In this document: in pieces, positions 9,465 through 29,323 of the stretch
How the letters are laid out: the number at the start of each line of letters is the position of its first letter
How positions within the stretch are numbered: the first letter of the stretch is position 1
NCBI RefSeq assembly: GCF_001579845.1
Contig: NZ_CP007440.1
Span: 3,742,029-3,806,028 of the forward strand
DNA: 64,000 bases
Source of the DNA: Rhodoplanes sp. Z2-YC6860
GTDB lineage: Bacteria; Pseudomonadota; Alphaproteobacteria; Rhizobiales; Xanthobacteraceae
Direction of reading: 5' to 3'
Program-made: the position numbers and the translations under genes
Notes under the pieces: model-generated
What the model was told of the DNA's origin: nothing
Database searches by the model: none
What the model saw: the letters and a program-made list of their open reading frames with translations, nothing else

Positions 9465-10163
9465 ATGAAGTTCACGTACAAGCTGGCGGCTGCTGCGGCG
9501 TTTCTCGGTATGGCAGCGTTGCCGGCAGGCGCGGCCGATCTACCGCAGCGTCCGGTCTACAAGGCGCCGGTCGTGGCGCCGCAGTTCAATTGGACCGGGT
9601 TCTATCTCGGCGTGTACGGCGGCTATGCGTTCGGCACCGGCGACACCGATGGCTTCGATGGCGGAATGGCCGGTGGCACCATCGGCTACAACTGGCAGGC
9701 GCTCGGCTCCCCGTGGGTGTTCGGCCTCGAGGCTGACGGCGGCTGGACCAACTACGGCGACTCCATCTCGGTGATCTCCGGTGGAGCGGTTGCAACCCTG
9801 TCGTCCGAAGCCAAGGCAATGGCTACGTTCCGTGCACGCGTTGGTTACGCGTGGGATCGCACGATGCTCTACGCGACGGGCGGCGGCGCCTGGATGCGCA
9901 ATGAGCTGTCGGCATCGGTTGCGGCACCGGGCATCGCAGTGGGCATTTCCGACACCCAGGACCACTTTGGCTACGCGGTCGGCGCGGGCATCGAGCATTC
10001 CTTCCTGCCGAACTGGTCTGCCAAGGTTGAATATCTGTATCTCGGCCTGGGCTCTGAGAATTACTTCGGCGGACTCGTTCGGTCCGGCGACCTCAATGCG
10101 CACACGATCAAGTTCGGCCTGAACTACCGCTTCGGTGGCGGTTACGTCGGCGGCCCGTACTAA
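9465..10163 (+). CDS. Outer-membrane beta-barrel protein, Omp25/31 (RopB-like) family
   Basis: A 232-residue exported porin-like protein. Residues 1-23 are a clear Sec signal ending in AGAADLP, followed by the Pro-rich VYKAPVVAP linker and NWTGFYLGVYGGYAFG, the hallmark first strand of the Rhizobiales/Brucella Omp25-Omp31 group. Eight amphipathic strands follow and the protein ends in a Tyr/Gly-rich segment. GGAGAGG lies shortly before the ATG. It sits alone between the kup genes with its own terminator 24 bases downstream, suggesting separate transcription. In the family it is an abundant surface protein linked to membrane integrity. Confidence 0.92.
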   Translation: MKFTYKLAAAAAFLGMAALPAGAADLPQRPVYKAPVVAPQFNWTGFYLGVYGGYAFGTGDTDGFDGGMAGGTIGYNWQALGSPWVFGLEADGGWTNYGDSISVISGGAVATLSSEAKAMATFRARVGYAWDRTMLYATGGGAWMRNELSASVAAPGIAVGISDTQDHFGYAVGAGIEHSFLPNWSAKVEYLYLGLGSENYFGGLVRSGDLNAHTIKFGLNYRFGGGYVGGPY

Positions 10164-10186
10164 TCGTCTGAATATAAGCGAATGCG

Positions 10187-10214
10187 AAGCCCCGCTCTTG
10201 AGCGGGGCTTTTGC
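10187..10214 (+). terminator. Rho-independent terminator after the Omp25-like gene
   Basis: A perfect 10-bp GC-rich stem (AAGCCCCGCT pairing with AGCGGGGCTT), a CTTG loop and a T-rich tail, 23 bases after the stop codon of the outer-membrane protein gene. Confidence 0.88.
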
Positions 10215-10320
10215 TTTTGCGACAGGTGTGACGTCGGCTCGCTACGACACGCGAACTCTGCCGCACGGCGGGATTAAGTCGCGTCGGTTCCCACCCGCTG
10301 GGCAGACGGGGTAGCAAGCC

Positions 10321-10360
10321 TGTATAAACGTGCATTCCGCCTCGTTGTGACGCGGCAATG
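10321..10360 (+). promoter_or_regulatory. Candidate kup promoter/leader, second copy
   Basis: TGTATAAAC (10321-10329), then CCGCCTC (10337-10343) and a TTGTGACG...GCAATGC block repeat the element order found before the first kup gene, at a similar distance from the ATG at 10387. Conservation outside the coding regions suggests shared control or recent duplication of the promoter. The function is inferred. Confidence 0.35.
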
Positions 10361-10386
10361 CTTTCCAGTTTGTCGGGCGACTGTCC

Positions 10387-12300
10387 ATGACCTCCGCTGA
10401 CGGGCCGCTTGCAGGCGATGCTCACAATGTCGACGGCAAGAGCCCCAACAGCTTCTGGCTGCTGACGGTCGGCAGCATCGGGGTCGTTTACGGCGATATC
10501 GGCACGAGCCCGCTCTATGCGTTGCGCGAGGCCGTGGTGGCTGCGGTTGGCTCAGAAGGCCTTGCCGGACGCGAATCGGTGCTCGGCGTGGTGTCGCTGA
10601 TCCTTTGGGCGCTGATCGTCACGGTCACGCTCAAATATGTCGTGATCCTGCTGCGCGCCGACAACAAGGGCGAGGGCGGGACCTTGGCGCTCATGGCGCT
10701 GGCGCAGCATGCCCTGGGCAAGAGGACCGCGGCGCTCATCCTGCTCGGGATCATCAGCGGAGCGCTGTTCTACGGCGATGCCGTCATCACGCCGGCGCTC
10801 TCGGTGCTGTCCGCGGTCGAAGGTCTCAAGATCGCGATGCCGCACTTCGATCCCTACATCGTGCCGGCCACGGTCGTCATTCTGATCGTGCTGTTCTCGG
10901 TGCAGTCGCGCGGCACAGCCAGCGTCGCGGCTTTCTTCGGCCCGGTCATGATGATCTGGTTTGCGGCGATAGCCGTGGGCGGGCTGTGGCATGTGATTCA
11001 GGACCCCGGCGTGCTGGCGGCGTTCAACCCGGCCTATGGCATCCGCTTCGTCGCAAACCACGGCGTTATCGGCCTCTTTACGCTCGGCGCGGTGTTCCTC
11101 GCCGTGACCGGCGCCGAGGCGCTCTATGCGGACCTCGGCCATTTCGGCCGCCCGCCCATTCAGTTCGCCTGGGCAGCGATCGTGTTGCCATCGCTCGCGC
11201 TCAATTATCTGGGACAGGGCGCGCTGGTGCTGTCGAACCCAAAGGCGATCGAGAACCCGTTCTTCCTGCTCTATCCCGAGTGGCTGCTGCTGCCGATGGT
11301 GGGCTTGGCCACGGCCGCCACCGTCATCGCGAGCCAGGCTGTGATCACCGGCGCCTATTCGCTGAGCCAGCAGGCCATCCAGCTCGGCCTTTTGCCCCGT
11401 CTCGAGGTGCGCCACACATCGGAAACCCAGGTCGGCCAGATTTACATGCCGCGGGTCAATGCGCTGCTGCTGGTCGGCGTGCTGCTGCTGGTGGCGCTGT
11501 TCCGCTCGTCGAGCGCGCTGGCATCGGCCTACGGCATCGCCGTCACCGGCACCATGGTGGTGACCGGGCTGATGGCCATGGTGGTGATCTTCAAGGACTG
11601 GCGCTGGCCGCTCTGGGCCGCGGTCGCGCTGATGGCCCCGTTCCTCTTGATCGACCTGACGTTCCTGGGCGCGAACCTGCTCAAGGTCGCCGAAGGCGGC
11701 TGGATGCCGCTCGTGCTCGGCGGCCTGGTGATGACCGTGATGTACACCTGGCGGCGCGGCAGCCGTCTTCTGTTCGAGAAGACGCGCAAGAGCGAGGTGC
11801 CGCTCGATCCGCTGGTCGCGAGCCTGGAGCGCAAGCCGCCGACGCGCGTGCCGGGCACGGCGGTGTTCTTCACCAGCGATCCGACCTGTGCGCCGACCGC
11901 GCTGATGCACAGCCTCAAGCACTACAAGGTGCTGCACGAGAAGAACGTCATCCTCACCATCGAGACCGCGCCGGTGCCGCGCATCGACCCTTCCGATCGG
12001 GTCCATATCGAGCCGATTGGCGAGACCTTCCAGCGGGTCAAGCTTCGCTTCGGCTTCATGGAGCAGCCGAACGTGCCGAAGGCGCTCGGCATCGCGAGAA
12101 AGCTCGGCTGGCAGTTCGACATCATGTCCACCTCGTTTTTCCTGTCGCGGCGGTCGCTCCGGATGGCGGCGAAATCGGGCATGCCGCGCTGGCAGGACCG
12201 CCTGTTTATCGGACTCGCCCGCAGCGCCAACGACGCCACCAACTATTTTCAGATTCCGACCGAGCGCGTGGTCGAGGTCGGCACGCAGGTCGCGATCTAG
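10387..12300 (+). CDS. kup: Kup system low-affinity potassium uptake protein (second copy)
   Basis: A 637-residue paralogue of the upstream Kup, with [10 protein letters not shown] at the N-terminus, about twelve membrane segments and the same cytoplasmic C-terminal domain ending [11 protein letters not shown]. The substitutions relative to the first copy are spread along the protein (for example [13 protein letters not shown] versus [13 protein letters not shown]-like segments), so this is a real paralogue pair and not an assembly duplication. It is probably expressed from its own promoter because a terminator lies between it and the preceding outer-membrane protein gene. A rhodanese gene follows after about 90 bases. 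Confidence 0.96.
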
Positions 12301-12393
12301 GCCGCAACTTGACGGCTGTTTATGGGGCGAGCACGCCCGTATAAGATCGCCGTCATGTCGCTGAAGCCTTTGTGCCGAATGGGAGATTGAGTG

Positions 12394-12726
12394 ATGTCCG
12401 AGTTGAGGGATCCGCCGGTTCACGACCTGACGCCCGAGGATGTGGCCAAAGGCTTGGCCGAAGGCACGATGCTGCTGGTCGATGTCCGCGAGTTGAACGA
12501 GACGGCGGTGGAGCGCTATCCGGGCGCGGCGATCGTGCCATTGTCGAGCTTCGACCCGTCGCAGATCCCGGATCCGCAGGGCAAAAAGGTCGTGTTTGCC
12601 TGCCGCTCCGGCCGCCGTTCGGTCACCGCTTCGCAGGCCGCGCAGGCTGGTGGCCTGCCGTATGACAGCCATCTCGCCGGCGGGATTCTTGCTTGGAAGG
12701 CGGCAGGATTGCCGACCGAAAGCTGA
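12394..12726 (+). CDS. Single-domain rhodanese-like protein
   Basis: A 110-residue single rhodanese domain. LLVDVRELNE marks the start of the fold and ACRSGRRS contains the active-site Cys (residue 70) in a C-R-S-G-R-x-S loop typical of thiosulfate/polysulfide sulfurtransferases of the GlpE/PspE type; HLAGGILAWKAAGLP ends the domain. No signal peptide is seen, so it is cytoplasmic. ATG 12394 was preferred over the overlapping GTG 12391 because GGGAG at 12381-12385 lies eight bases from it. Sulfur donor and acceptor are unknown. Confidence 0.9.
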   Translation: MSELRDPPVHDLTPEDVAKGLAEGTMLLVDVRELNETAVERYPGAAIVPLSSFDPSQIPDPQGKKVVFACRSGRRSVTASQAAQAGGLPYDSHLAGGILAWKAAGLPTES

Positions 12727-12755
12727 CACCCTCATTGATGCTTGGGAGATTGCCG

Positions 12756-13865
12756 ATGCTGCGCGCCTTCGCGGTGCCGTTCCTGTCGCTGCTGGCGGCG
12801 GGGTTTGCCTCCTCGTCGTTGGCGCAAGAGCGCACCGTGAACGTCTACAACTGGTCGGACTACGTGGAGCCGACCGTGGTGGAGAGTTTCACCAAGGAGA
12901 CCGGCATCAAGGTCAAGTACGACACCTTCGACGCCAACGAGACGCTGGAGACGAAGCTTCTCGCCGGCAAGTCCGGGTATGACGTGGTGGTGCCGACCGG
13001 CTACTTCCTGGAGCGGCAGATCAAGGCCGGCGTGTTCCAAAAGCTCGACAAGAGCAAGCTCACCAACATCGGCAATGTCTGGCCGGACATCGCCAGGCGG
13101 CTCGCCACCTACGATCCCGGCAACCAGTACGCCGTCAATTACATGTGGGGCACGGTCGGCATCGGCTACAACATCAAGAAGGCGAAGGAGGTGCTCGGCA
13201 TCTCCGGACCGATTGGTGATGCGATGGCGAATTGGGACATCGTGTTCAAGCCCGAGCAGCTTGCGAAATTCAAGGGCTGCGGCGTGCACATGCTCGACTC
13301 TGCCGACGATGTGTTGCCCGCCGCGCTGCACTATCTTGGCCTCGATCCCAACACCAAGCAGCAGGCCGATCTCGAGAAGGCCGCCGAATTGGTGATGAAG
13401 GTCCGGCCAGCGGTCGCCAAATTCCACTCGTCGGAATATCTGAACGCGCTCGCCTCGGGCGAGATCTGCCTGGTGCTCGGCTGGTCGGGCGACGTCAAGC
13501 AGGCGCAGAAGCGCGCCGCCGAAGCCAAGGGCGGCACCGAAGTCGGCTATGCGATCCCCAAGGGTGGCGCGCAGATGTTCTTCGACAATTTCGCGATCCC
13601 GAAGGATGCGCCTCATACCGCCGAGGCCCATGCCTTCATCGATTACATGCTGCGCGCGGATGTGGCGGCGAAGAATTCAAACTTCCTTGGCTACGCCAAC
13701 GGCAATCTCGCGAGCCAGAAGCTGATGGACAAGGCGGTGCTCGACGACAAGACCGTCTATCCGGACGAGGCGACGCTTGCGAGCCTCTACGTCGTCACCG
13801 CGCGCGACCAGCGCACCACGCGGCTGACCAACCGGCTTTGGACCAAGATCAAGACGGGGCAGTAG
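12756..13865 (+). CDS. potF: Polyamine ABC transporter substrate-binding protein (PotF-like)
   Basis: A 369-residue periplasmic binding protein. The signal peptide ends near SSLAQ, and the mature protein starts TVNVYNWSDYVEP, the PotD/PotF signature; GYDVVVPTGYFLERQI, ANWDIVFKP and NSNFLGYANGN are further family blocks. It probably binds putrescine or spermidine. GGGAG at 12744-12748 lies seven bases from ATG 12756; an earlier in-frame ATG at 12738 lies upstream of that site and is less likely. No permease or ATPase gene (potGHI) is linked, so it must work with components encoded elsewhere. Confidence 0.9.
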   Translation: MLRAFAVPFLSLLAAGFASSSLAQERTVNVYNWSDYVEPTVVESFTKETGIKVKYDTFDANETLETKLLAGKSGYDVVVPTGYFLERQIKAGVFQKLDKSKLTNIGNVWPDIARRLATYDPGNQYAVNYMWGTVGIGYNIKKAKEVLGISGPIGDAMANWDIVFKPEQLAKFKGCGVHMLDSADDVLPAALHYLGLDPNTKQQADLEKAAELVMKVRPAVAKFHSSEYLNALASGEICLVLGWSGDVKQAQKRAAEAKGGTEVGYAIPKGGAQMFFDNFAIPKDAPHTAEAHAFIDYMLRADVAAKNSNFLGYANGNLASQKLMDKAVLDDKTVYPDEATLASLYVVTARDQRTTRLTNRLWTKIKTGQ

Positions 13866-20359: not shown

Positions 20360-21289
20360 TCAGACTTCGCGCCAGCGGCGGTGCAGCCACAACCACTGCT
20401 CGGGGTGCTCGCGCACCCAGCCCTCGATCACGCTGGTGATGACCTGCATGGTGCCGTCGACATCGATCCGGCCTTCGGCATCGCGCTTGGGCTCGATCGC
20501 TTCGGTGACGAGCACTTGCAGTCGTCCGTCGGGGTGGCGCACCGAGCGGATGCCATGGATCGGGCATTCGAAGTGGCGGGCGAGCCGCGCGATGGTCTGG
20601 TTGGCGAGGGTCTTTCGGCCAAAGAACATCACCGGCACACCGGGCCCGTACCACTGGTCGACCAGCATCGCGACATGCGAGCCGCGCTTGAGCGCATCGG
20701 CAAGCTTCACCGGCGCGTCCATGGTGGTCGGCAGCAGCGTGCCCATGCAGCTCGCGCGCATTTCGACGACTTCGTCGGCAACGGCTTTCACATTGGGCCG
20801 GCGATAAAGCACCGTGGTGTCGAGGCCGTACATCCGCGCAGCGATCGCGGGCAGCTCCCAGTTGCCGACATGGGCGGCAAACACCAGCGCAGGCTTGCCG
20901 TCGTCGCGCAGCCGGATTGCGATTTTCTCGCTGTCGTCGGAGCGCATGATGCGGCCCGCGCCTTGCAGCCGGTCGTAGTCCCAAAGCTGATCGATGTGGG
21001 CGAATTCGGCGACGACACGGCCGAGATTATCCCAGGCGCCGCGCAAGATGCGTTCGATTTCGTCGGACGACTTTTCCGGGAAGGCTGCGGTCAATTGGGC
21101 GCGGCCGATGCGGTGCTCGCGAAGGAGAGGGCCCAAGGTGCGCAACAGCGCGCCCGAGGCTCTCGACATCACACTGAGCGGAAGGAGGTGCGCCGCGCGC
21201 AGCACGTGCACACCGAGGAAGCCGATCAGCGCGTTGTTGAAACGCCGCCAGCGGATCGCAAGCTTGAGCTTGGTTGCGCGGAGATCCAC
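20360..21289 (-). CDS. lpxXL: Lipid A very-long-chain acyltransferase, LpxL/HtrB family (LpxXL-type)
   Basis: A 309-residue inner-membrane acyltransferase of the LpxL/LpxM family. Near the N-terminus is a hydrophobic anchor (LIGFLGVHVL); the catalytic HVGNWE (H140-E145, the HX4E motif) and LYRRPNVKAV follow, then VAMLVDQWYGPG. As the last gene of the acpXL operon, it is the expected enzyme that moves the 27-hydroxyoctacosanoyl-type chain from AcpXL to lipid A. It starts 8 bases after the dehydrogenase stop. The family is certain; the specific chain length comes from the operon context. Confidence 0.9.
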   Translation of the reverse strand: MDLRATKLKLAIRWRRFNNALIGFLGVHVLRAAHLLPLSVMSRASGALLRTLGPLLREHRIGRAQLTAAFPEKSSDEIERILRGAWDNLGRVVAEFAHIDQLWDYDRLQGAGRIMRSDDSEKIAIRLRDDGKPALVFAAHVGNWELPAIAARMYGLDTTVLYRRPNVKAVADEVVEMRASCMGTLLPTTMDAPVKLADALKRGSHVAMLVDQWYGPGVPVMFFGRKTLANQTIARLARHFECPIHGIRSVRHPDGRLQVLVTEAIEPKRDAEGRIDVDGTMQVITSVIEGWVREHPEQWLWLHRRWREV

Positions 21290-21297
21290 GCCGATGC

Positions 21298-22332
21298 CTA
21301 GAAGGTCACGACGATCTTGCCGAACACCTGGCGGCTTTCCAGCCGTGCGATGCCGCGCTCCAGATCGGCGAGCCCGATTTCGGTGTCGATCACCGGCAGC
21401 ATGCCGCCCGCCATCTTGTCGAGGCTCTCGCGGATGTTCTTCATCGAGGCGCCGAACGAACCGAAAATCTTGTACTGCTGCTGGAAGAGCTGCATCAGAT
21501 TGAAGGTGATGCTCGGCCCCGCAGTCGAGCCGCAGGTGACGAGGCGGCCGCCGCGCTTGAGCACGAGCAGCGACTCGTTGAAGCCTTCGCCGCCGACATG
21601 CTCGAACACCACGTCGACGCCCTTTTTGTTGGTGAGCTTGCGCGTGATCGTTGCAAAGCGCTCGGTGCGATAGTTGATGACGTGATCGGCGCCCAGCGCC
21701 TTGGCCTTGGCGGCCTTCTCGTCGTCGCCCACAGTGGTGATCACGGTGCAGCCGATGGCCTTGGCCATCTTGATCGCGACAGTACCGATGCCCGAGCCGC
21801 CAGCCTGCACTAGAATGGTTTCGCCGGGCTCGAGCTTGGCGTTGTCGAACAGCATGTGCTGCACGGTCGAGAACGCGATCGGCGCGCAGGACGCGTCGCG
21901 GAGCGACACGCCCTTGGGCACCGGCATGACGAGGCGCGCCGGCATGTTCAGCCGGTCGCGCGCGAAGCCGTCGACATGGAAGCCCATGATGCCGCCGACG
22001 TTTTCGCAGAGGTTGTCGCGGCCCTCGCGGCAGGCCTTGCAGGTGCCGCAGGTGAGCGCGCCGTACATCACCACCGGATCGCCGGCCTTGAAGCCGCTGA
22101 CGCCGGCACCCACGGCCGTGATCTCGCCCGACGCCTCGACACCCACGACCTGCGGCATCTTCCGCTTGGCGAAGGCCATGCCGCGGAAGCCCCAGAGATC
22201 GAGGTGATTGAGCGCGACCGCTTTGGTGGCGATCTGCACTTCGCCCGCGGCCGGCGGCGGCGGGGCAGGGATCGCGGTCAGTTCGAGCTTGCGGTCTCCA
22301 AGAAGCTGGAGCGCGCGGACGGTCTCGGTCAC
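21298..22332 (-). CDS. Zinc-binding medium-chain dehydrogenase of the acpXL cluster
   Basis: A 344-residue medium-chain dehydrogenase/reductase. It has the structural-zinc Cys ladder CGTCKACREGRDNLC, a Rossmann VQAGGSGIGTVAIKMA nucleotide-binding loop, and GVDVVFEHVGGEGF. It overlaps the fabF1XL stop by four bases (ATGA), so translation is coupled. In the Rhizobium very-long-chain fatty acid cluster the gene at this place is called adh2XL and is thought to act in chain synthesis; its precise reaction is not established. Alternative readings are quinone oxidoreductase or enoyl reductase activity. Confidence 0.88.
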   Translation of the reverse strand: MTETVRALQLLGDRKLELTAIPAPPPPAAGEVQIATKAVALNHLDLWGFRGMAFAKRKMPQVVGVEASGEITAVGAGVSGFKAGDPVVMYGALTCGTCKACREGRDNLCENVGGIMGFHVDGFARDRLNMPARLVMPVPKGVSLRDASCAPIAFSTVQHMLFDNAKLEPGETILVQAGGSGIGTVAIKMAKAIGCTVITTVGDDEKAAKAKALGADHVINYRTERFATITRKLTNKKGVDVVFEHVGGEGFNESLLVLKRGGRLVTCGSTAGPSITFNLMQLFQQQYKIFGSFGASMKNIRESLDKMAGGMLPVIDTEIGLADLERGIARLESRQVFGKIVVTF

Positions 22333-23609
22333 GCGGGCTCCAGTCCCATCACCAGCGAGACATTCTGCCCGCCGAAGCCGAACGAGCTCGAGATCACGTG
22401 CCGCACCTTGCCGGCGCGGGCCTGGTTCGGCACGACGTCGAGCGGGATGCTGGGATCGGGCACTTGATAGTTGATGGTCGGCGGCAACATCTGGTGCTGC
22501 AGGGTCAGCAGCGAGAACACCGCCTCGACCGCGCCCGCGGCCGACAGCGTGTGGCCGATCATCGATTTGTTGGACGACATCGGGATCGACTTGGCGCGTT
22601 CGCCAAACACGGCCATCACGCCGATCGCTTCCATCTTGTCGTTTTCGGGCGTGCCGGTGCCGTGCGGGTTGATGTAGTCGATGTCGTCAGGCGACAGTCC
22701 CGCGTCTGCGAGCGCGTTGCGGATGCAGCCGATGATCGGCTTGCCGTCCGGGCTCGAGCGGGTGCGGTGGAAGCTGTCGGCCATCTCGCCGCAGCCTTCC
22801 ATCACGCCAAGGATCGTCGCGCCGCGGGCGCGCGCCGACTCGAGGCTCTCCAGCACCACCGCGCCGGCGCCTTCGGCCATCACGAAGCCGTCGCGATTCT
22901 TCGAGAAGGGTTTCGCTGCCTGCTCGGGCGGGTCCATCGAGGTGGACAGCGCTGAGAGCAGCGAGAAGCGGATGAGCGATTCCTGATTGATGGAGCCGTC
23001 GGAGCCGATGCAGAGCGCCGAGCTCGCTTCGCCGCGACGGATCGCCTCGACGCCAAGCTGGATCGCGGTCGCACCGGATGCGCAGGCGGTCGACAGCGAG
23101 ATCGGCGAGCCCTTGGTGCCGTACTTGTCGGCCAGGTTGTTGGCGACCGAGCCGAACATGAAACGCTGGTGATGCGCCGGGAAGGCGCCGCTCGCCGCGG
23201 TGCGGATCAGGTCGCCATAGCTGACATTGGCGTTGGCGCCCGACTTGGCCGCGACCTCACGGCGCTGCGTCCATTCGATCTCGATCGGCGGCACCGCGAT
23301 GAACAGCGGGCCGGGGAAATCGCCGAGCGTGCCCACGCCCGATTGCGCCACCGCTTCCTCGGCCGCCATGTCGGCCATCCGTTCGGACAGTTCGGGCGCC
23401 GATAGCGGATTGGCCGGCACGAAGTCGACGCAGCCTGCGAACTTGGTCTTCAAGCCGTCGGTGGCAAAGCGGCTGATGCTCTTGATGCCGGACCTGCCGG
23501 CGGTGAGGCTCTTCCAGTTGTCGACCAAGCCCGCGCCGAGCGAGGTCACGACGCCCATGCCCGTGACGACCACGATCGGACGGCCGGCGCTGTCATGGTT
23601 GGACGGCAT
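22329..23609 (-). CDS. fabF1XL: Beta-ketoacyl-ACP synthase (FabF1XL-type), catalytically complete
   Basis: A 426-residue condensing enzyme of the FabF/KAS II type. The full Cys-His-His triad is present: STACASGA (C176), NPHGTGT (H316) and SMIGHTLSAAG (H353). It elongates the acyl chain on AcpXL with malonyl units on the way to the very-long-chain acid. It lies between its degenerate partner fabF2XL (13 bases upstream) and the dehydrogenase gene (overlapping), in the same order as the Rhizobium/Sinorhizobium clusters. The family assignment is firm. Confidence 0.93.
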   Translation of the reverse strand: MPSNHDSAGRPIVVVTGMGVVTSLGAGLVDNWKSLTAGRSGIKSISRFATDGLKTKFAGCVDFVPANPLSAPELSERMADMAAEEAVAQSGVGTLGDFPGPLFIAVPPIEIEWTQRREVAAKSGANANVSYGDLIRTAASGAFPAHHQRFMFGSVANNLADKYGTKGSPISLSTACASGATAIQLGVEAIRRGEASSALCIGSDGSINQESLIRFSLLSALSTSMDPPEQAAKPFSKNRDGFVMAEGAGAVVLESLESARARGATILGVMEGCGEMADSFHRTRSSPDGKPIIGCIRNALADAGLSPDDIDYINPHGTGTPENDKMEAIGVMAVFGERAKSIPMSSNKSMIGHTLSAAGAVEAVFSLLTLQHQMLPPTINYQVPDPSIPLDVVPNQARAGKVRHVISSSFGFGGQNVSLVMGLEPA

Positions 23610-23622
23610 ACCCGTTCTCCCC

Positions 23623-24819
23623 TCAGGGCGCCTCGACTAGCGCCAGACCCTCACCACGCCAGTGACCGATGGATGTCACCACCGCCTGTGTCAGCGGCGC
23701 TTCCATCGCGCGTTCGACGCCTGAATCGTCGCCCGGCGGATAGAGGCTACCACGGCTGACCGCAATTGCGGCGAGCGCCACGTTCATCGGGAACTGCGGC
23801 TCGAAAGCATGTCCGAGATAGGTACCGGTGGCGCGGACGGCAATGTCCTTGTGCTCCGCGAGGAAAGCACGTTCCTCGGCTGTGGCGGCGGCGACACCGG
23901 ATGCTCCCGAAATCACCGCAGCCTTGCCGGGCGTAAGCTTGCCGCTGATCTTGCCCCACAGCTTGCCAAGCGACGCGCCGATGTCGCCGGGCTGGCGGCG
24001 GGTCCGGTCGGACAGCACGGCGCTGAGCTTGGCGATGCGCCTGGCGCCGCGTGCATCGGCGTGGGCGCGGGATTCGATCACCAGGAACGCGCCGAGCGAA
24101 GCCAGCGCCAGACCCTTGTGGGCCTCGCGCTTCCAGACCGGCGCGAACTGATCTTTCAGGGCAAAGCCGCCGAACTCGTAGAGCATCAGCAGATCCGGGC
24201 GCTCGGCATTGTGGCTGCCGCCGACCAGCGCGATGTCGCTCTGGCCTGCGACAATGCGCGAATGCGCGATGCGCACCGCGTCGACGCCCGCCGACTCTTC
24301 GCCCATGAAGGTGCGCGACGAGCCGATCACGCCGTGCACGATCGAGATGTTGCCGGCGAGCAGGTTCGAGAGCTGCGCCAGGAACAGAGTGGGGCGCAGG
24401 TCGCTCATCAGCCGTTCGTTGAGGAAGGCCTCCGGCTTCTCGGCAGTCGGCAGGCCCGACAGGATCGCGGTGTCGGCGTTGATGTCGCGCTCGCCGCCGC
24501 CGGCGGCGACGATCATGTCGGTGCGCGAGAGAATCTCGGTGTTGCCCTTGATGCCGGCGGAGTCGAGCGCGAGGCCGGCCGCATAGGTGCCGATGCGCTG
24601 CCAGGGCTCCATCTGGCGTTGGTCGCCCTTCTTCGGGATCTGCTTGTCGAAGTCGAGCGCGCCGATCTTGTGAATAATGTAGGGTGGGTAGGTGGTGGAG
24701 TCTGCCGCGGGCTTGCCGGAGCTGAGCCCCTGCCAATGCGCATCCGGTCCCTCGCCGAGGCAAGAGACGATACCGATGCCGGTGATCCAGGCCTCGCGCG
24801 CCGTGCTGTTGTCAGCCAT
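23623..24819 (-). CDS. fabF2XL: Beta-ketoacyl synthase-fold protein (FabF2XL-type) lacking the catalytic Cys
   Basis: A 398-residue thiolase-fold protein that aligns with ketosynthases at both ends (WITGIGIVSCLGEGPDAHW at the start, GTYLGHAFEP near the end) but lacks key residues. Where FabF1XL has TACASGA, this protein reads GEESAG, putting Glu175 at the nucleophile position; the NxHGTGT block is replaced by VISGASGVAAAT. The last His (GHAFEP) remains. This resembles chain-length-factor subunits of type II polyketide systems, suggesting a heterodimer with FabF1XL. Its ATG overlaps the fabZXL stop by eight bases. The role is inferred. Confidence 0.87.
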   Translation of the reverse strand: MADNSTAREAWITGIGIVSCLGEGPDAHWQGLSSGKPAADSTTYPPYIIHKIGALDFDKQIPKKGDQRQMEPWQRIGTYAAGLALDSAGIKGNTEILSRTDMIVAAGGGERDINADTAILSGLPTAEKPEAFLNERLMSDLRPTLFLAQLSNLLAGNISIVHGVIGSSRTFMGEESAGVDAVRIAHSRIVAGQSDIALVGGSHNAERPDLLMLYEFGGFALKDQFAPVWKREAHKGLALASLGAFLVIESRAHADARGARRIAKLSAVLSDRTRRQPGDIGASLGKLWGKISGKLTPGKAAVISGASGVAAATAEERAFLAEHKDIAVRATGTYLGHAFEPQFPMNVALAAIAVSRGSLYPPGDDSGVERAMEAPLTQAVVTSIGHWRGEGLALVEAP

Positions 24820-25285
24820 TCGCCGGAACCTCCAGTTGGAATCCGATGCGCTTGGCGACAGCGTGCATGTTCTCCAGGAATTCGCCCTTCGGGAAATCCA
24901 CGATGCGGAAGGTGATGTCCGCGTTGCACACGGTCTTGCCGTCGACCGCGACCTCGGCTTCGGTCATCGCGAAGCCTGAGCCTTCATGCATGATCTTGGC
25001 CGACACCGTGAGCGCTTGGCCGGGCGTCACGAAGGTGCGAAGCTTGGCTTCCTTGACGGCGGCGAGGAACGGCATCTTGTCAAAGCGGTTGCGCGCGATC
25101 AGCAGCCAGCCCGATGCTTGCGCCATGGATTCGATCAGCAGTACGCCCGGCATCAGCGGCCGTCCCGGAAAATGACCTTCGAAGATCGTGCTCTCGGTCG
25201 GGACGTTGGCTTCGACGCGGATCGTCAGGTCGGTCAGATTGAGGTCGATGATCCGATCGATGAGCTGAAAATACTCGAGCCGCAT
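24812..25285 (-). CDS. fabZXL: 3-hydroxyacyl-ACP dehydratase, FabZ-type (acpXL cluster)
   Basis: A 157-residue hot-dog-fold dehydratase. IFEGHFPGRPLMPGVLLIE contains the catalytic His (H38) and, in LLIESMAQ, the catalytic Glu (E52), the FabZ pattern. It removes water from 3-hydroxyacyl-AcpXL during chain elongation. It sits 33 bases after acpXL and overlaps fabF2XL by eight bases. Standard length for the family. Its dedication to AcpXL, as distinct from general fatty acid synthesis, is taken from the operon context. Confidence 0.92.
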   Translation of the reverse strand: MRLEYFQLIDRIIDLNLTDLTIRVEANVPTESTIFEGHFPGRPLMPGVLLIESMAQASGWLLIARNRFDKMPFLAAVKEAKLRTFVTPGQALTVSAKIMHEGSGFAMTEAEVAVDGKTVCNADITFRIVDFPKGEFLENMHAVAKRIGFQLEVPANG

Positions 25286-25318: not shown

Positions 25319-25600
25319 TTACTTGGCCTTGGCGGCGACCAACTCGTCGATGCGGGAGCAGAGGTTATTCAGCACGAAGTACTGCTCGGTGGAAGCCTTG
25401 CCCTCGTTGACCTCCTGCGTCCACTGCTCGAGCGGCAGCTTGATGCCGAAGGCCTTGTCGATGGCGAAGGCGATATCGAGAAAGTCCAAGCTGTCGATGC
25501 CGAGATCGTCGATGGCGTGGCTCTCCGGTTTGATGGTGTCCCGCGGGATATCGCACGTCTCGGCAATGATATTGGCCACGGTCTCGAACGTCGAAGGCAT
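25319..25600 (-). CDS. acpXL: Specialised acyl carrier protein AcpXL
   Basis: A 93-residue acyl carrier protein. The phosphopantetheine-bearing Ser is S37 in the GIDSLDF motif, set in the expected helix start. The residues [20 protein letters not shown] after helix III and a Lys/Ala tail make it longer than the 78-residue housekeeping ACP, as in Rhizobium AcpXL, which carries 27-hydroxyoctacosanoate. It is the first gene of the six-gene operon, so the operon promoter should lie in the 350 bases to its right. Confidence 0.93.
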
Positions 25601-25954: not shown

Positions 25955-26302
25955 ATGGTCGTAAGATCGTTGGTCGCCACTTGCTTTTTGTGCCTCACGC
26001 TTGCCGGACCCGCCGCGACGGATGCCTTCGCGGAAACCGGCATCGCTTCGATCTATGGCTATAACGGCGGCAAGACCGCGAGCGGTGAGCGGGCCAATCC
26101 CCGTCGATTGACGGCCGCCCACAAGAGCCTGCCCTTCGGCACGATGGTGAAGGTGACCAACAAGAAGAACGGCCGAACCGTCATGGTTCGGATCAACGAC
26201 CGCGGGCCGTTTATCCGGGGACGTGTCATCGATCTGACGCCGGCGGCGGCAAGCCAGCTCGGCTTTTCGGGCCTCGCACCGGTGACGGTCAGCGCCCGGT
26301 GA
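25955..26302 (+). CDS. RlpA-like double-psi beta-barrel septal/cell-wall protein
   Basis: A 115-residue exported protein. A Sec signal (residues 1-27, ending DAFAETG) precedes one RlpA-type domain: [31 protein letters not shown]-like [22 protein letters not shown], with the catalytic-type Asp in NDRGPF. RlpA proteins cut glycan strands lacking stem peptides, or bind the septum. This one has no lipobox and no SPOR domain, so it is a minimal periplasmic form. TGGAG lies about nine bases before the ATG. Confidence 0.9.
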
Positions 26303-27793: not shown

Positions 27794-29209
27794 CTACGAC
27801 GACGAACCGCGGTAGCCCGGGATGAAGTCGGCCATGTTGATCGACTGATATCCGGGCACCGCGATCTCGTCCGGGTAGTTGGCCTTTCGGGTGGCATCGA
27901 TCCCCATCTTGGTGACGAGGTTCGAGCCGCCGGCCGGATCGTACGAGGCCGGATCGAGCGGCGAGCCCTTGGCGTAGGGCACCATGAAGGTGTCGGTATC
28001 GGCGCGCACGCGCGTCGCGATCGCGTGCCACACATCTGTATCGCTGTTGATGTCGACGTCGTGGTCGACCACCACGACGAACTTCAGGAACGGATCGGCG
28101 ACGAAGGCCGCCATGGCGGCGAGCTTGGCTTCGCCCTCCTGCATCTTCTCGAGAGCAATGTAGCAGATGAAGCGGAAGCGCCCGGAACGGGGCACGTTTA
28201 CGCCGCGTACGGTGGGGCAGGCAATTTTCACCGTGTCCTCGATGAAGCTCGTGCGGATCAGGCCGGACAGCAGAAGATTGTCGGCGTGGCCGACGAAGGC
28301 GTTCTGATAGAGCGGGTTCTTGCGCCGCGTGATCGCCTTGATCTCCAGCACCGGATTCATGCGCTGCGGCCCGTAGGTGCCGGGATATTCGCCGAACGGC
28401 GCTTCCAGCCGGCGCTCGACGGGACGGATCTCGCATTCCAGCACCATTTCGGCATTGGCCGGCACGTCGAGCGGAATGGTCTTGCAGCGCACGAGCGGCA
28501 CCGCCTGCTGCAACATGCCGCCCGCGATCTTGATCTCGTCGGAGTCGAGCGTCGAGAAGCAGAGACTGCCGATGAAGAACGCCGGATGGTGCCCGATCAC
28601 GATCGCGACAGGACAAGGCAACCCGCGCTTCTCGTATTTCTTCCAGATGATGTTGCCGTCGGCGGTTTCGGAAAGCTGTACGCCGAGCAGGTTCTTGTCG
28701 TGCACCATATGGCGGTAGATGCCGACGTTGTTGATGCCGGTTTCCGGATCGCGCATCACCGCGAGTCCCGCGGTGATGTACTTGCCGGCATCCTTCTCGT
28801 GATAGGTGCAGATCGGCATGTCCTCGACGTTGACGTCCTTGCCGAGGAAGACCTCCTCATGCACCGGCGCTTCCGTGACCATCACGGGATCGACCGGATT
28901 GGCCTGGCGTGCCGCGCATTCCTTGACGAACGCCTTGACGTCGCCGCTCTCCATGCCGAGCGCCAGGCGCAGCCGCTCGAAGCTCGCATGCATGTTCGCG
29001 ACGAGCGGCATGGTCGAGCCTTTGACGTTCTCGAAGATCACCAGCGGAAATTTGCCGTCACGCTCCAGCCGCTCGATGATGCCGGAGACGCCGAATTTCG
29101 GATCGACTTCCTTTGTGATCCGCACCACCTGCTCGGGATGCTCCTTTTCGAGAAACTCGATGAAGCCGCGCAGGTCGGGCGTGTAGGGGGAGTTCGACGG
29201 AAAGCTCAT
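27794..29209 (-). CDS. UbiD family decarboxylase (prenylated-FMN dependent)
   Basis: A 471-residue UbiD-like enzyme for reversible decarboxylation of aromatic or unsaturated acids with prenyl-FMN made by a UbiX-type protein. MVLECEI and RLEAPFGEYPG contain the catalytic Glu residues, and NNVGIYRHMV, FFIGSLCFS and LVRCKTIPLDVP follow the family. ATG 29209 was chosen since DLRGFIEFLE, the normal N-terminal helix, follows directly; the frame runs 27 codons further upstream without family character. No ubiX is adjacent. Residues do not tell whether the substrate is a hydroxybenzoate, gallate-like or other acid. Confidence 0.88.
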   Translation of the reverse strand: MSFPSNSPYTPDLRGFIEFLEKEHPEQVVRITKEVDPKFGVSGIIERLERDGKFPLVIFENVKGSTMPLVANMHASFERLRLALGMESGDVKAFVKECAARQANPVDPVMVTEAPVHEEVFLGKDVNVEDMPICTYHEKDAGKYITAGLAVMRDPETGINNVGIYRHMVHDKNLLGVQLSETADGNIIWKKYEKRGLPCPVAIVIGHHPAFFIGSLCFSTLDSDEIKIAGGMLQQAVPLVRCKTIPLDVPANAEMVLECEIRPVERRLEAPFGEYPGTYGPQRMNPVLEIKAITRRKNPLYQNAFVGHADNLLLSGLIRTSFIEDTVKIACPTVRGVNVPRSGRFRFICYIALEKMQEGEAKLAAMAAFVADPFLKFVVVVDHDVDINSDTDVWHAIATRVRADTDTFMVPYAKGSPLDPASYDPAGGSNLVTKMGIDATRKANYPDEIAVPGYQSINMADFIPGYRGSSS

Positions 29210-29323
29210 CAGTTGGTCTCGGTTTACGTTTCTTCGGTGCCGGGCAGGCGCGCAAACATAGCCTCCCGGGATGTGCTTGGCTGCATCCAAAGACGGGCAG
29301 GGCTGCGCACGGATTGCAGAGCG

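What the first reader, a model, noticed from the sequence alone, without database searches (positions are those of the whole stretch)
23623..24819. A ketosynthase-fold partner without catalytic Cys: a chain-length-factor-like subunit in lipid A synthesis
Aligned by eye to FabF1XL next door (C176, H316, H353 all present), FabF2XL has Glu175 at the Cys position, no NxHGTGT block and only the last His. Type II polyketide systems use exactly such a catalytic/degenerate pair, where the degenerate subunit sets chain length. A KS/CLF-like heterodimer would explain how the cell makes a C28-type chain on AcpXL. The alignment is seen; the heterodimer is inference.
Basis: partly seen in the sequence, partly recalled or inferred. 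Interest (0 to 1): 0.72.

Follow-up and report, generated by a model that had tools for sequence, protein, structure and literature searches.

The report
Cysteine-less ketosynthase partner in lipid A
Next to a normal chain-building enzyme for an unusually long lipid A fatty acid sits a relative that has lost its catalytic machinery but keeps one invariant glutamate in its place, and it probably works as a fixed, non-catalytic partner of that enzyme rather than as a second enzyme, which is how databases name it.

Summary
FabF2XL (23623-24819, minus strand) has Glu175 where FabF1XL has Cys176; the first-His loop is deleted and the Lys is gone. The Glu is in 152 of 152 distinct homologues (sampled pairs down to 36% identity), while the leftover last His is in 133 of 152. 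FabF1XL keeps Cys, His, Lys and His wherever the columns are filled. The genes go together: of 247 genomes of the order, 66 have FabF2XL and the same 66 FabF1XL; 145 of 152 distinct FabF2XL are followed directly by FabF1XL. AlphaFold gives a ketosynthase fold; a single chain through both genes folds with pTM 0.87 and best matches the PfaC ketosynthase/chain-length-factor didomain (6riw) over both halves. A published fabF2XL mutant loses the very long chain (polarity possible). Best reading: an obligate KS/CLF-like pair with FabF2XL non-catalytic. Heterodimer: probable, not shown. Chain-length setting: possible, untested. It is not a textbook CLF (Glu not Gln, no Lys, first-His loop deleted; ancestry unresolved). 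NCBIfam and two of three papers looked into call it a ketoacyl-ACP synthase; nine searches of the open library found no paper treating it as a partner subunit. New variant of a known kind.

The parts
23623..24819 (-). fabF2XL: Cys-less ketosynthase-fold subunit (NCBIfam NF005084), Glu175 at the nucleophile position
22329..23609 (-). fabF1XL: catalytic ketosynthase (NF005076) with C176, H316, K348, H353; proposed partner
24812..25285 (-). fabZXL: 3-hydroxyacyl-ACP dehydratase (FabA/FabZ family)
25319..25600 (-). acpXL: dedicated acyl carrier protein (NF005079, 178.9 bits, cut-off 83)
21298..22332 (-). zinc-binding dehydrogenase of the cluster (adh2XL/adhlA2XL in the literature)
20360..21289 (-). 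lpxXL: lipid A acyltransferase (NF005120, 390.7 bits, cut-off 273)
24295..24297 (-). codon of Glu175, at the column of the catalytic Cys of FabF1XL
   Evidence: residue numbering, alignment; position by arithmetic (24819 minus 3 x 174 = 24297)

Best explanation
FabF2XL is the non-catalytic half of an obligate ketosynthase pair with FabF1XL, built like the KS/chain-length-factor pairs of type II polyketide and PUFA synthases. FabF1XL does every condensation on AcpXL; FabF2XL supplies the other side of the dimer interface, where the acyl tunnel ends. Its emptied, Glu-filled active site (E174-E175, perhaps held by an invariant Arg such as R169; pairing inferred) shapes that tunnel so that the chain can grow to C26-C30 before LpxXL takes it. 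Shown: loss of the catalytic residues, invariance of the Glu, genetic coupling of the two genes, the predicted fold. From the literature: fabF2XL is needed for the long chain. Inferred: the heterodimer, the buried Glu contacts, chain-length control.
For: Glu in 152 of 152 while the leftover His drifts. FabF1XL catalytically intact. The same 66 of 247 order genomes carry both proteins, all over the families' cut-offs. In 289 class genomes 15 have FabF2XL over its cut-off and 14 FabF1XL at E <= 1e-120 (8 over its cut-off), the 14 within the 15; the odd one, G191, has FabF2XL cut at a contig end. FabF1XL lies directly downstream in 165 of 172 copies, 145 of 152 distinct ones; five of the seven exceptions were searched genome-wide and all five carry it. 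Cluster order acpXL-fabZ-F2-F1-MDR-lpxXL in 57 of 61 loci with enough flank, out of 80. Four of 247 genomes have two of each gene. Near-invariant positions, gaps excluded: FabF2XL 47 of 243 in the N-half, 11 of 147 in the C-half; FabF1XL 62 of 246 and 56 of 166. AF2: FabF2XL pTM 0.89; single chain F2-F1 pTM 0.87; top PDB hit PfaC KS-CLF 6riw, TMq 0.71 over 964 columns, against 0.41-0.43 for the 49 single chains listed. An A. fabrum fabF2XL mutant loses VLCFA and fabF2XL alone partly restores it (PMC11901934).
Against: No binding or activity data. In the 6riw match the order is swapped (FabF2XL half on the KS, FabF1XL half on the CLF; inferred from sequential alignment and 6riw's name), so it supports the pseudo-two-fold layout, not the roles; the match is at 15% identity and rmsd 7.8 A, and the pair model has weak stretches inside the FabF1XL half (629-650 below pLDDT 50). 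The A. fabrum insertion lies upstream of fabF1XL in one operon, so polarity may contribute. Invariant charged residues E110, R111, D112, D116 are odd for a greasy tunnel if they lie there. In two assemblies a FabF2XL is not beside FabF1XL (G764/L027, G327) and in a third (G191) FabF1XL was not found. Nothing tests chain length.
Confidence: 0.62

Rival explanations
1. FabF2XL is a structural or carrier-docking partner of FabF1XL only: a heterodimer forms, but chain length is set elsewhere (FabF1XL's own unusual pocket, AcpXL, or LpxXL).
For: FabF1XL has its own conserved, non-FabF-like motif near the expected acyl pocket (P108 145, E110 144, W113 146 of 146). In the ishigamide KS-CLF the ACP contacts the CLF mainly at helix II (PMC8358021, passages). 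FabF2XL variation was not linked here to any product length.
Against: An invariant Glu at the old nucleophile site (152 of 152) suggests that the emptied pocket itself matters. LpxXL transfers C16-C18 acids when no VLCFA is made, so it is a weak ruler (PMC11901934 discussion).
Confidence: 0.25
2. FabF2XL acts alone with a different chemistry at Glu175, for example decarboxylating malonyl-AcpXL to prime the chain, as KSQ-type domains do.
For: A fixed polar residue replaces the Cys, as Gln does in four CLFs read here. The (omega-1)-hydroxyl of these acids could come from a special starter (inference, no data here).
Against: The first-His loop is deleted in 152 of 152, no Lys occurs in the 149 with a residue there, and the last His is another residue in 16 of 149: the groups that would hold and activate malonate are gone. 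The fixed residue is Glu, not Gln.
Confidence: 0.07
3. FabF2XL is a degenerating duplicate with little function, carried along in the operon.
For: The C-half is weakly conserved (11 near-invariant positions of 147) and is shortened in second copies of one family.
Against: 59 invariant columns in a 56-sequence alignment; the same 66 of 247 genomes keep both genes; an A. fabrum mutant loses VLCFA and no ORS278 mutant could be obtained.
Confidence: 0.03

Closest known systems
PfaC KS-CLF didomain of PUFA synthase (PDB 6riw)
   Same: Catalytic ketosynthase plus a ketosynthase-like partner in the making of a long fatty acid; best PDB match of the modelled pair, over both halves.
   Different: One polypeptide of a megasynthase, KS first (recalled, and as the PDB title has it); here two separate proteins with the degenerate one first. 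Identity over the match 15%. Its sequence was not read here.
Actinorhodin-type KS/CLF (PDB 1tqy) of aromatic type II polyketide synthases
   Same: Adjacent genes; intact KS and Cys-less partner of similar length and fold (1tqy_B is rank 6 for FabF2XL, TM 0.78); motif around the lost Cys similar ([E/D]-Q-A-G-G-L-D-A in the four CLFs, E-E-S-A-G-V-D-A in the window).
   Different: The four CLFs have Gln, Asp, Lys, Arg at the four catalytic columns; FabF2XL has Glu, a deletion, non-Lys, mostly His. Degenerate gene first here, KS first in the four plasmid loci.
ApeO-ApeC of aryl polyene synthesis
   Same: Gram-negative, fatty-acid-like cluster with reducing cycles and a heterodimeric KS/degenerate partner whose second thiolase half is mostly lost (PMC8358021, passages).
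   Different: FabF2XL keeps both halves in the usual copies; different product and cluster. No ApeC sequence was compared.
FabF (KAS II)
   Same: Same fold (TMq 0.78-0.82 to the FabFs listed); the literature and databases name FabF2XL after it.
   Different: FabF has Cys-His-Lys-His; FabF2XL has none of Cys, first His or Lys; Pfam's C-terminal ketosynthase domain is not detected.

Membership tests
NCBIfam NF005084 (PRK06519, 'beta-ketoacyl-ACP synthase') | score above the curated cut-off (320 bits) | tested here: met
   590.4 bits over 5-397
Chain length factor (type II PKS) | ketosynthase fold | tested here: met
   AF2 pTM 0.89; 1tqy_B TM 0.78
Chain length factor (type II PKS) | catalytic Cys missing | tested here: met
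   Glu in 152 of 152
Chain length factor (type II PKS) | Gln in place of Cys, as in annotated CLFs | tested here: not met
   Gln in 4 of 4 reference CLFs, Glu in 152 of 152 FabF2XL
Chain length factor (type II PKS) | gene next to an intact KS gene | tested here: met
   145 of 152 distinct copies; FabF1XL catalytic residues intact
Chain length factor (type II PKS) | obligate heterodimer with that KS | tested here: inconclusive
   single-chain model pTM 0.87 and match to PfaC KS-CLF; no control, no biochemistry
Chain length factor (type II PKS) | groups with CLFs in a tree | tested here: inconclusive
   FabF2XL+CLF support 45/53; FabF2XL+FabF1XL not rejected, p-AU 0.502
Chain length factor (type II PKS) | lines the tunnel and sets product length | not testable with these tools
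   no coordinates or products available
FabF / catalytic ketoacyl-ACP synthase | Cys-His-His plus Lys | tested here: not met
KSQ-type malonyl-ACP decarboxylase (definition recalled) | Gln for Cys with both His retained | tested here: not met
   Glu; first-His loop deleted in 152 of 152
ApeC-type half-size CLF | only the first thiolase half | tested here: not met
   398 aa, both halves modelled; a second copy in L154 has an open frame of only 329 codons

The most novel reading that the evidence does not exclude
Lipid A very-long-chain synthesis is run by a KS/CLF-like heterodimer whose Cys-less subunit, fixed by a Glu instead of the CLF's Gln, is a dedicated ruler for C26-C30 chains, perhaps arisen independently of polyketide CLFs.
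Probability: 0.38. Interest if true: 0.72.

Novelty: new variant of a known kind. Interest (0 to 1): 0.58.

Why it matters
How these bacteria make C26-C30 acids on a dedicated carrier is left open in the passages seen, which list two ketoacyl synthases or elongation proteins. If only one is a synthase and the other its fixed partner, the name of NF005084 misleads, the need for both genes is explained, and chain-length control in lipid A becomes testable with two purified proteins and a few point changes. It would also extend KS/CLF logic from polyketides and PUFA to an outer-membrane lipid made by symbionts and intracellular bacteria.

Tried and rejected
Misalignment by eye: rejected, the joint alignment puts Glu at the Cys column in 152 of 152. 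True gene fusion of the pair, which would have been direct evidence: none in 172 copies; a long open frame over fabF1XL in G152 (856 codons) runs across the neighbouring fabF2XL in another frame and is not a fusion. FabF2XL without FabF1XL downstream, 7 of 172: L020, L025, L039, L049 and L102 have 27-669 bases left; L027 has an inverted, unrelated open frame downstream, but its genome carries FabF1XL on another contig with MDR and lpxXL matches; L159 (G327) is on a 7997-base contig without FabF1XL, a second FabF1XL being on another contig. In the genome-wide search of L020, L025, L027, L039 and L049, four best matches are over the cut-off and the fifth (L020's genome, 625.8 bits) starts at a contig end. 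In G191 (L102) no FabF1XL was found at E <= 1e-120. Phylogeny to decide between CLF origin and duplication of FabF1XL: unresolved. Second structural aligner: library not available. Tunnel geometry: model coordinates are not given to the script box. Two older papers on the C28 transferase and on S. meliloti VLCFA mutants (identifiers recalled) are not held, so prior mention there cannot be excluded.

Full report
What is there. On the minus strand lie, in order, acpXL (25319-25600), fabZXL (24812-25285), fabF2XL (23623-24819), fabF1XL (22329-23609), a zinc-binding dehydrogenase (21298-22332) and lpxXL (20360-21289). This is the gene order of the published acpXL-lpxXL cluster for the very-long-chain acyl group of lipid A (PMC11901934). 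FabF2XL scores 590.4 bits against NCBIfam NF005084, named a beta-ketoacyl-ACP synthase; FabF1XL 734.4 bits against NF005076. Pfam finds only the N-terminal ketosynthase domain in FabF2XL but both domains in FabF1XL.

The observation. FabF1XL has C176, H316, K348, H353. In the same alignment FabF2XL has E175, a deletion, Gly and His. I extracted 172 FabF2XL copies from the window and 167 of 188 loci, 152 distinct. Glu stands at the Cys column in 152 of 152, as do the preceding E174 and, six residues before, R169 in theirs. The first-His loop is missing in 152; no Lys occurs among 149 with a residue; the last His is kept in 133, another residue in 16, a gap in 3. Among 3000 sampled pairs identity falls to 36%, median 52%. 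So the catalytic apparatus is lost in the whole set and the Glu is under strong constraint.

Genetic coupling. Of 247 genomes of the order, 66 have FabF2XL (E <= 1e-60) and 66 FabF1XL (E <= 1e-150); I compared the two handle lists and they are the same. In 289 genomes of the class 15 have FabF2XL over the family's cut-off (282 have some match at E <= 0.001, the rest of them weak, generic ketosynthase matches) and 14 have FabF1XL at E <= 1e-120, 8 of them over its cut-off; the 14 lie within the 15, and the exception, G191, has FabF2XL cut at a contig end. In 299 genomes of the phylum 31 have FabF2XL at E <= 1e-40, all in the class. FabF1XL follows FabF2XL directly on the same strand in 165 of 172 copies, 145 of 152 distinct ones. 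Five of the seven exceptions were searched genome-wide (L020, L025, L027, L039, L049) and all five genomes carry FabF1XL; in G327 it is on another contig, in G191 it was not found. In 61 of the first 80 loci, those with enough flank, 57 show acpXL-fabZ-F2-F1-MDR-lpxXL, 3 lack matches to the last two, 1 (L027) stops after F2. Four of the 247 genomes (G297, G327, G367, G525) list two of each gene and G337 two FabF2XL and one FabF1XL. In family code f152 the second FabF2XL copy is shortened at the C-half (L154: open frame of 329 codons, matching FabF2XL over its residues 7-255 only) yet keeps R142, R169, E174, E175, and the FabF1XL next to it keeps all four catalytic residues.

Where the constraint lies. 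With gaps left out, FabF2XL has 47 near-invariant positions of 243 in the N-half and 11 of 147 in the C-half; FabF1XL 62 of 246 and 56 of 166. The most conserved stretch, about 136-180, runs through the segment that in FabF leads along the dimer interface to the nucleophile (placement recalled from FabF and KS-CLF structures, not measured here).

Structure. AlphaFold2 on 56 sequences (the window protein and 55 of 78 usable from the first 80 loci, thinned for redundancy) gives pLDDT 88.8 and pTM 0.89. Foldseek ranks many FabFs and, sixth, the actinorhodin CLF (1tqy_B, TM 0.78). For the pair, I used loci where the two genes are in frame, reading stops as Gly, so that 23 natural pairs (of 25 in frame) form a matched alignment; the L013 chain (835 aa) folds with pLDDT 82.0 and pTM 0.87; below 50 are the linker (396-412) and some stretches in both halves, the longest 629-650. 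A pTM that high for two similar-sized domains means that their mutual placement is predicted with confidence (general property of the score, not a test here). Its best PDB match is 6riw, the PfaC KS-CLF didomain, TMq 0.71 over 964 columns, whereas the other 49 rows shown, single ketosynthase chains, reach 0.41-0.43. The order is swapped relative to PfaC, so what matches is the pseudo-symmetric dimer. Because a generic ketosynthase homodimer has the same layout and no control fold could be run, this supports but does not prove a heterodimer.

Comparison with CLFs. Four CLFs annotated as such on Streptomyces plasmids have Gln, Asp, Lys, Arg at the four columns. FabF2XL resembles them in losing the nucleophile and in the local motif, but differs in detail. 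In a 60-row tree (22 of 45 FabF2XL and 16 of 50 FabF1XL drawn at random, 14 other ketosynthases, 4 KS, 4 CLF) FabF2XL is one group (100/100) on a long stem; union with CLFs has support 45/53 and union with FabF1XL is not rejected (p-AU 0.502). I therefore say that it works like a CLF partner, not that it is a member of the CLF family.

Literature. Papers holding both acpXL and fabF2XL: four. Seen: passages and the discussion section of PMC11901934, passages of PMC5613085 and PMC7663294; PMC5539429 only in listings. The protein is there a 3-oxoacyl-ACP synthase II, a fatty acid elongation protein and a beta-ketoacyl-ACP synthase, respectively. In PMC11901934 a fabF2XL insertion in A. fabrum removes VLCFA and a plasmid with fabF2XL partly restores it; in PMC5613085 no fabF1XL or fabF2XL mutant of ORS278 could be obtained. 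'Ketosynthase' and 'dimer' do not occur in the main text of those two. Nine library searches were answered; fabF2XL with 'chain length factor' found 0 papers, and no title or abstract start listed describes this protein as a partner subunit. The library holds open-licence papers only. CLF biology (obligate heterodimer, partner lacking catalytic residues, channel at the interface) is from passages of PMC12664062 and PMC7949117.

Verdict. Observation confirmed; interpretation partly supported. FabF2XL is probably a non-catalytic, obligate partner of FabF1XL; that it sets chain length is a reasonable but untested step. I could not read the A. fabrum protein itself here, so the link from its mutant to this sequence rests on the shared gene name and cluster.

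Noticed in passing
L153:1159-3619 and 10782-13322; L154:1302-3574 and 9646-12186; L152: Genomes of one family (code f152) have a second FabF2XL/FabF1XL pair; the second FabF2XL is shortened or weak in its C-terminal half but keeps the Glu pair. A short-chain-reductase-like frame (recalled resemblance) lies next to the second pair in L153. In L152 the second pair looks interrupted.
   Followed up: partly
window 22329-23609: FabF1XL is itself unusual: nearly invariant P108, E110, W113 where FabF has its Gly-rich gate region, and a segment before the nucleophile that is four residues shorter than in the genome's FabF.
   Followed up: no
L027:4995-6179 and L203: In one metagenome-assembled genome the cluster is split: fabF2XL is followed by an inverted, transporter-like open frame (recalled resemblance), while fabF1XL, MDR and lpxXL matches are on another contig.
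   Followed up: partly
window 27794-29290: A minus-strand open frame that by its sequence looks like a UbiD-type decarboxylase (recalled, no family search made).
   Followed up: no
window 25955-26302: A small RlpA-like open frame upstream of acpXL on the other strand (recalled resemblance only).
   Followed up: no
PDB entries 9s5h/9s5i: A solved structure named 3-oxoacyl-(acyl-carrier-protein) synthase matches both proteins by sequence; its system could not be identified from the listing.
   Followed up: no
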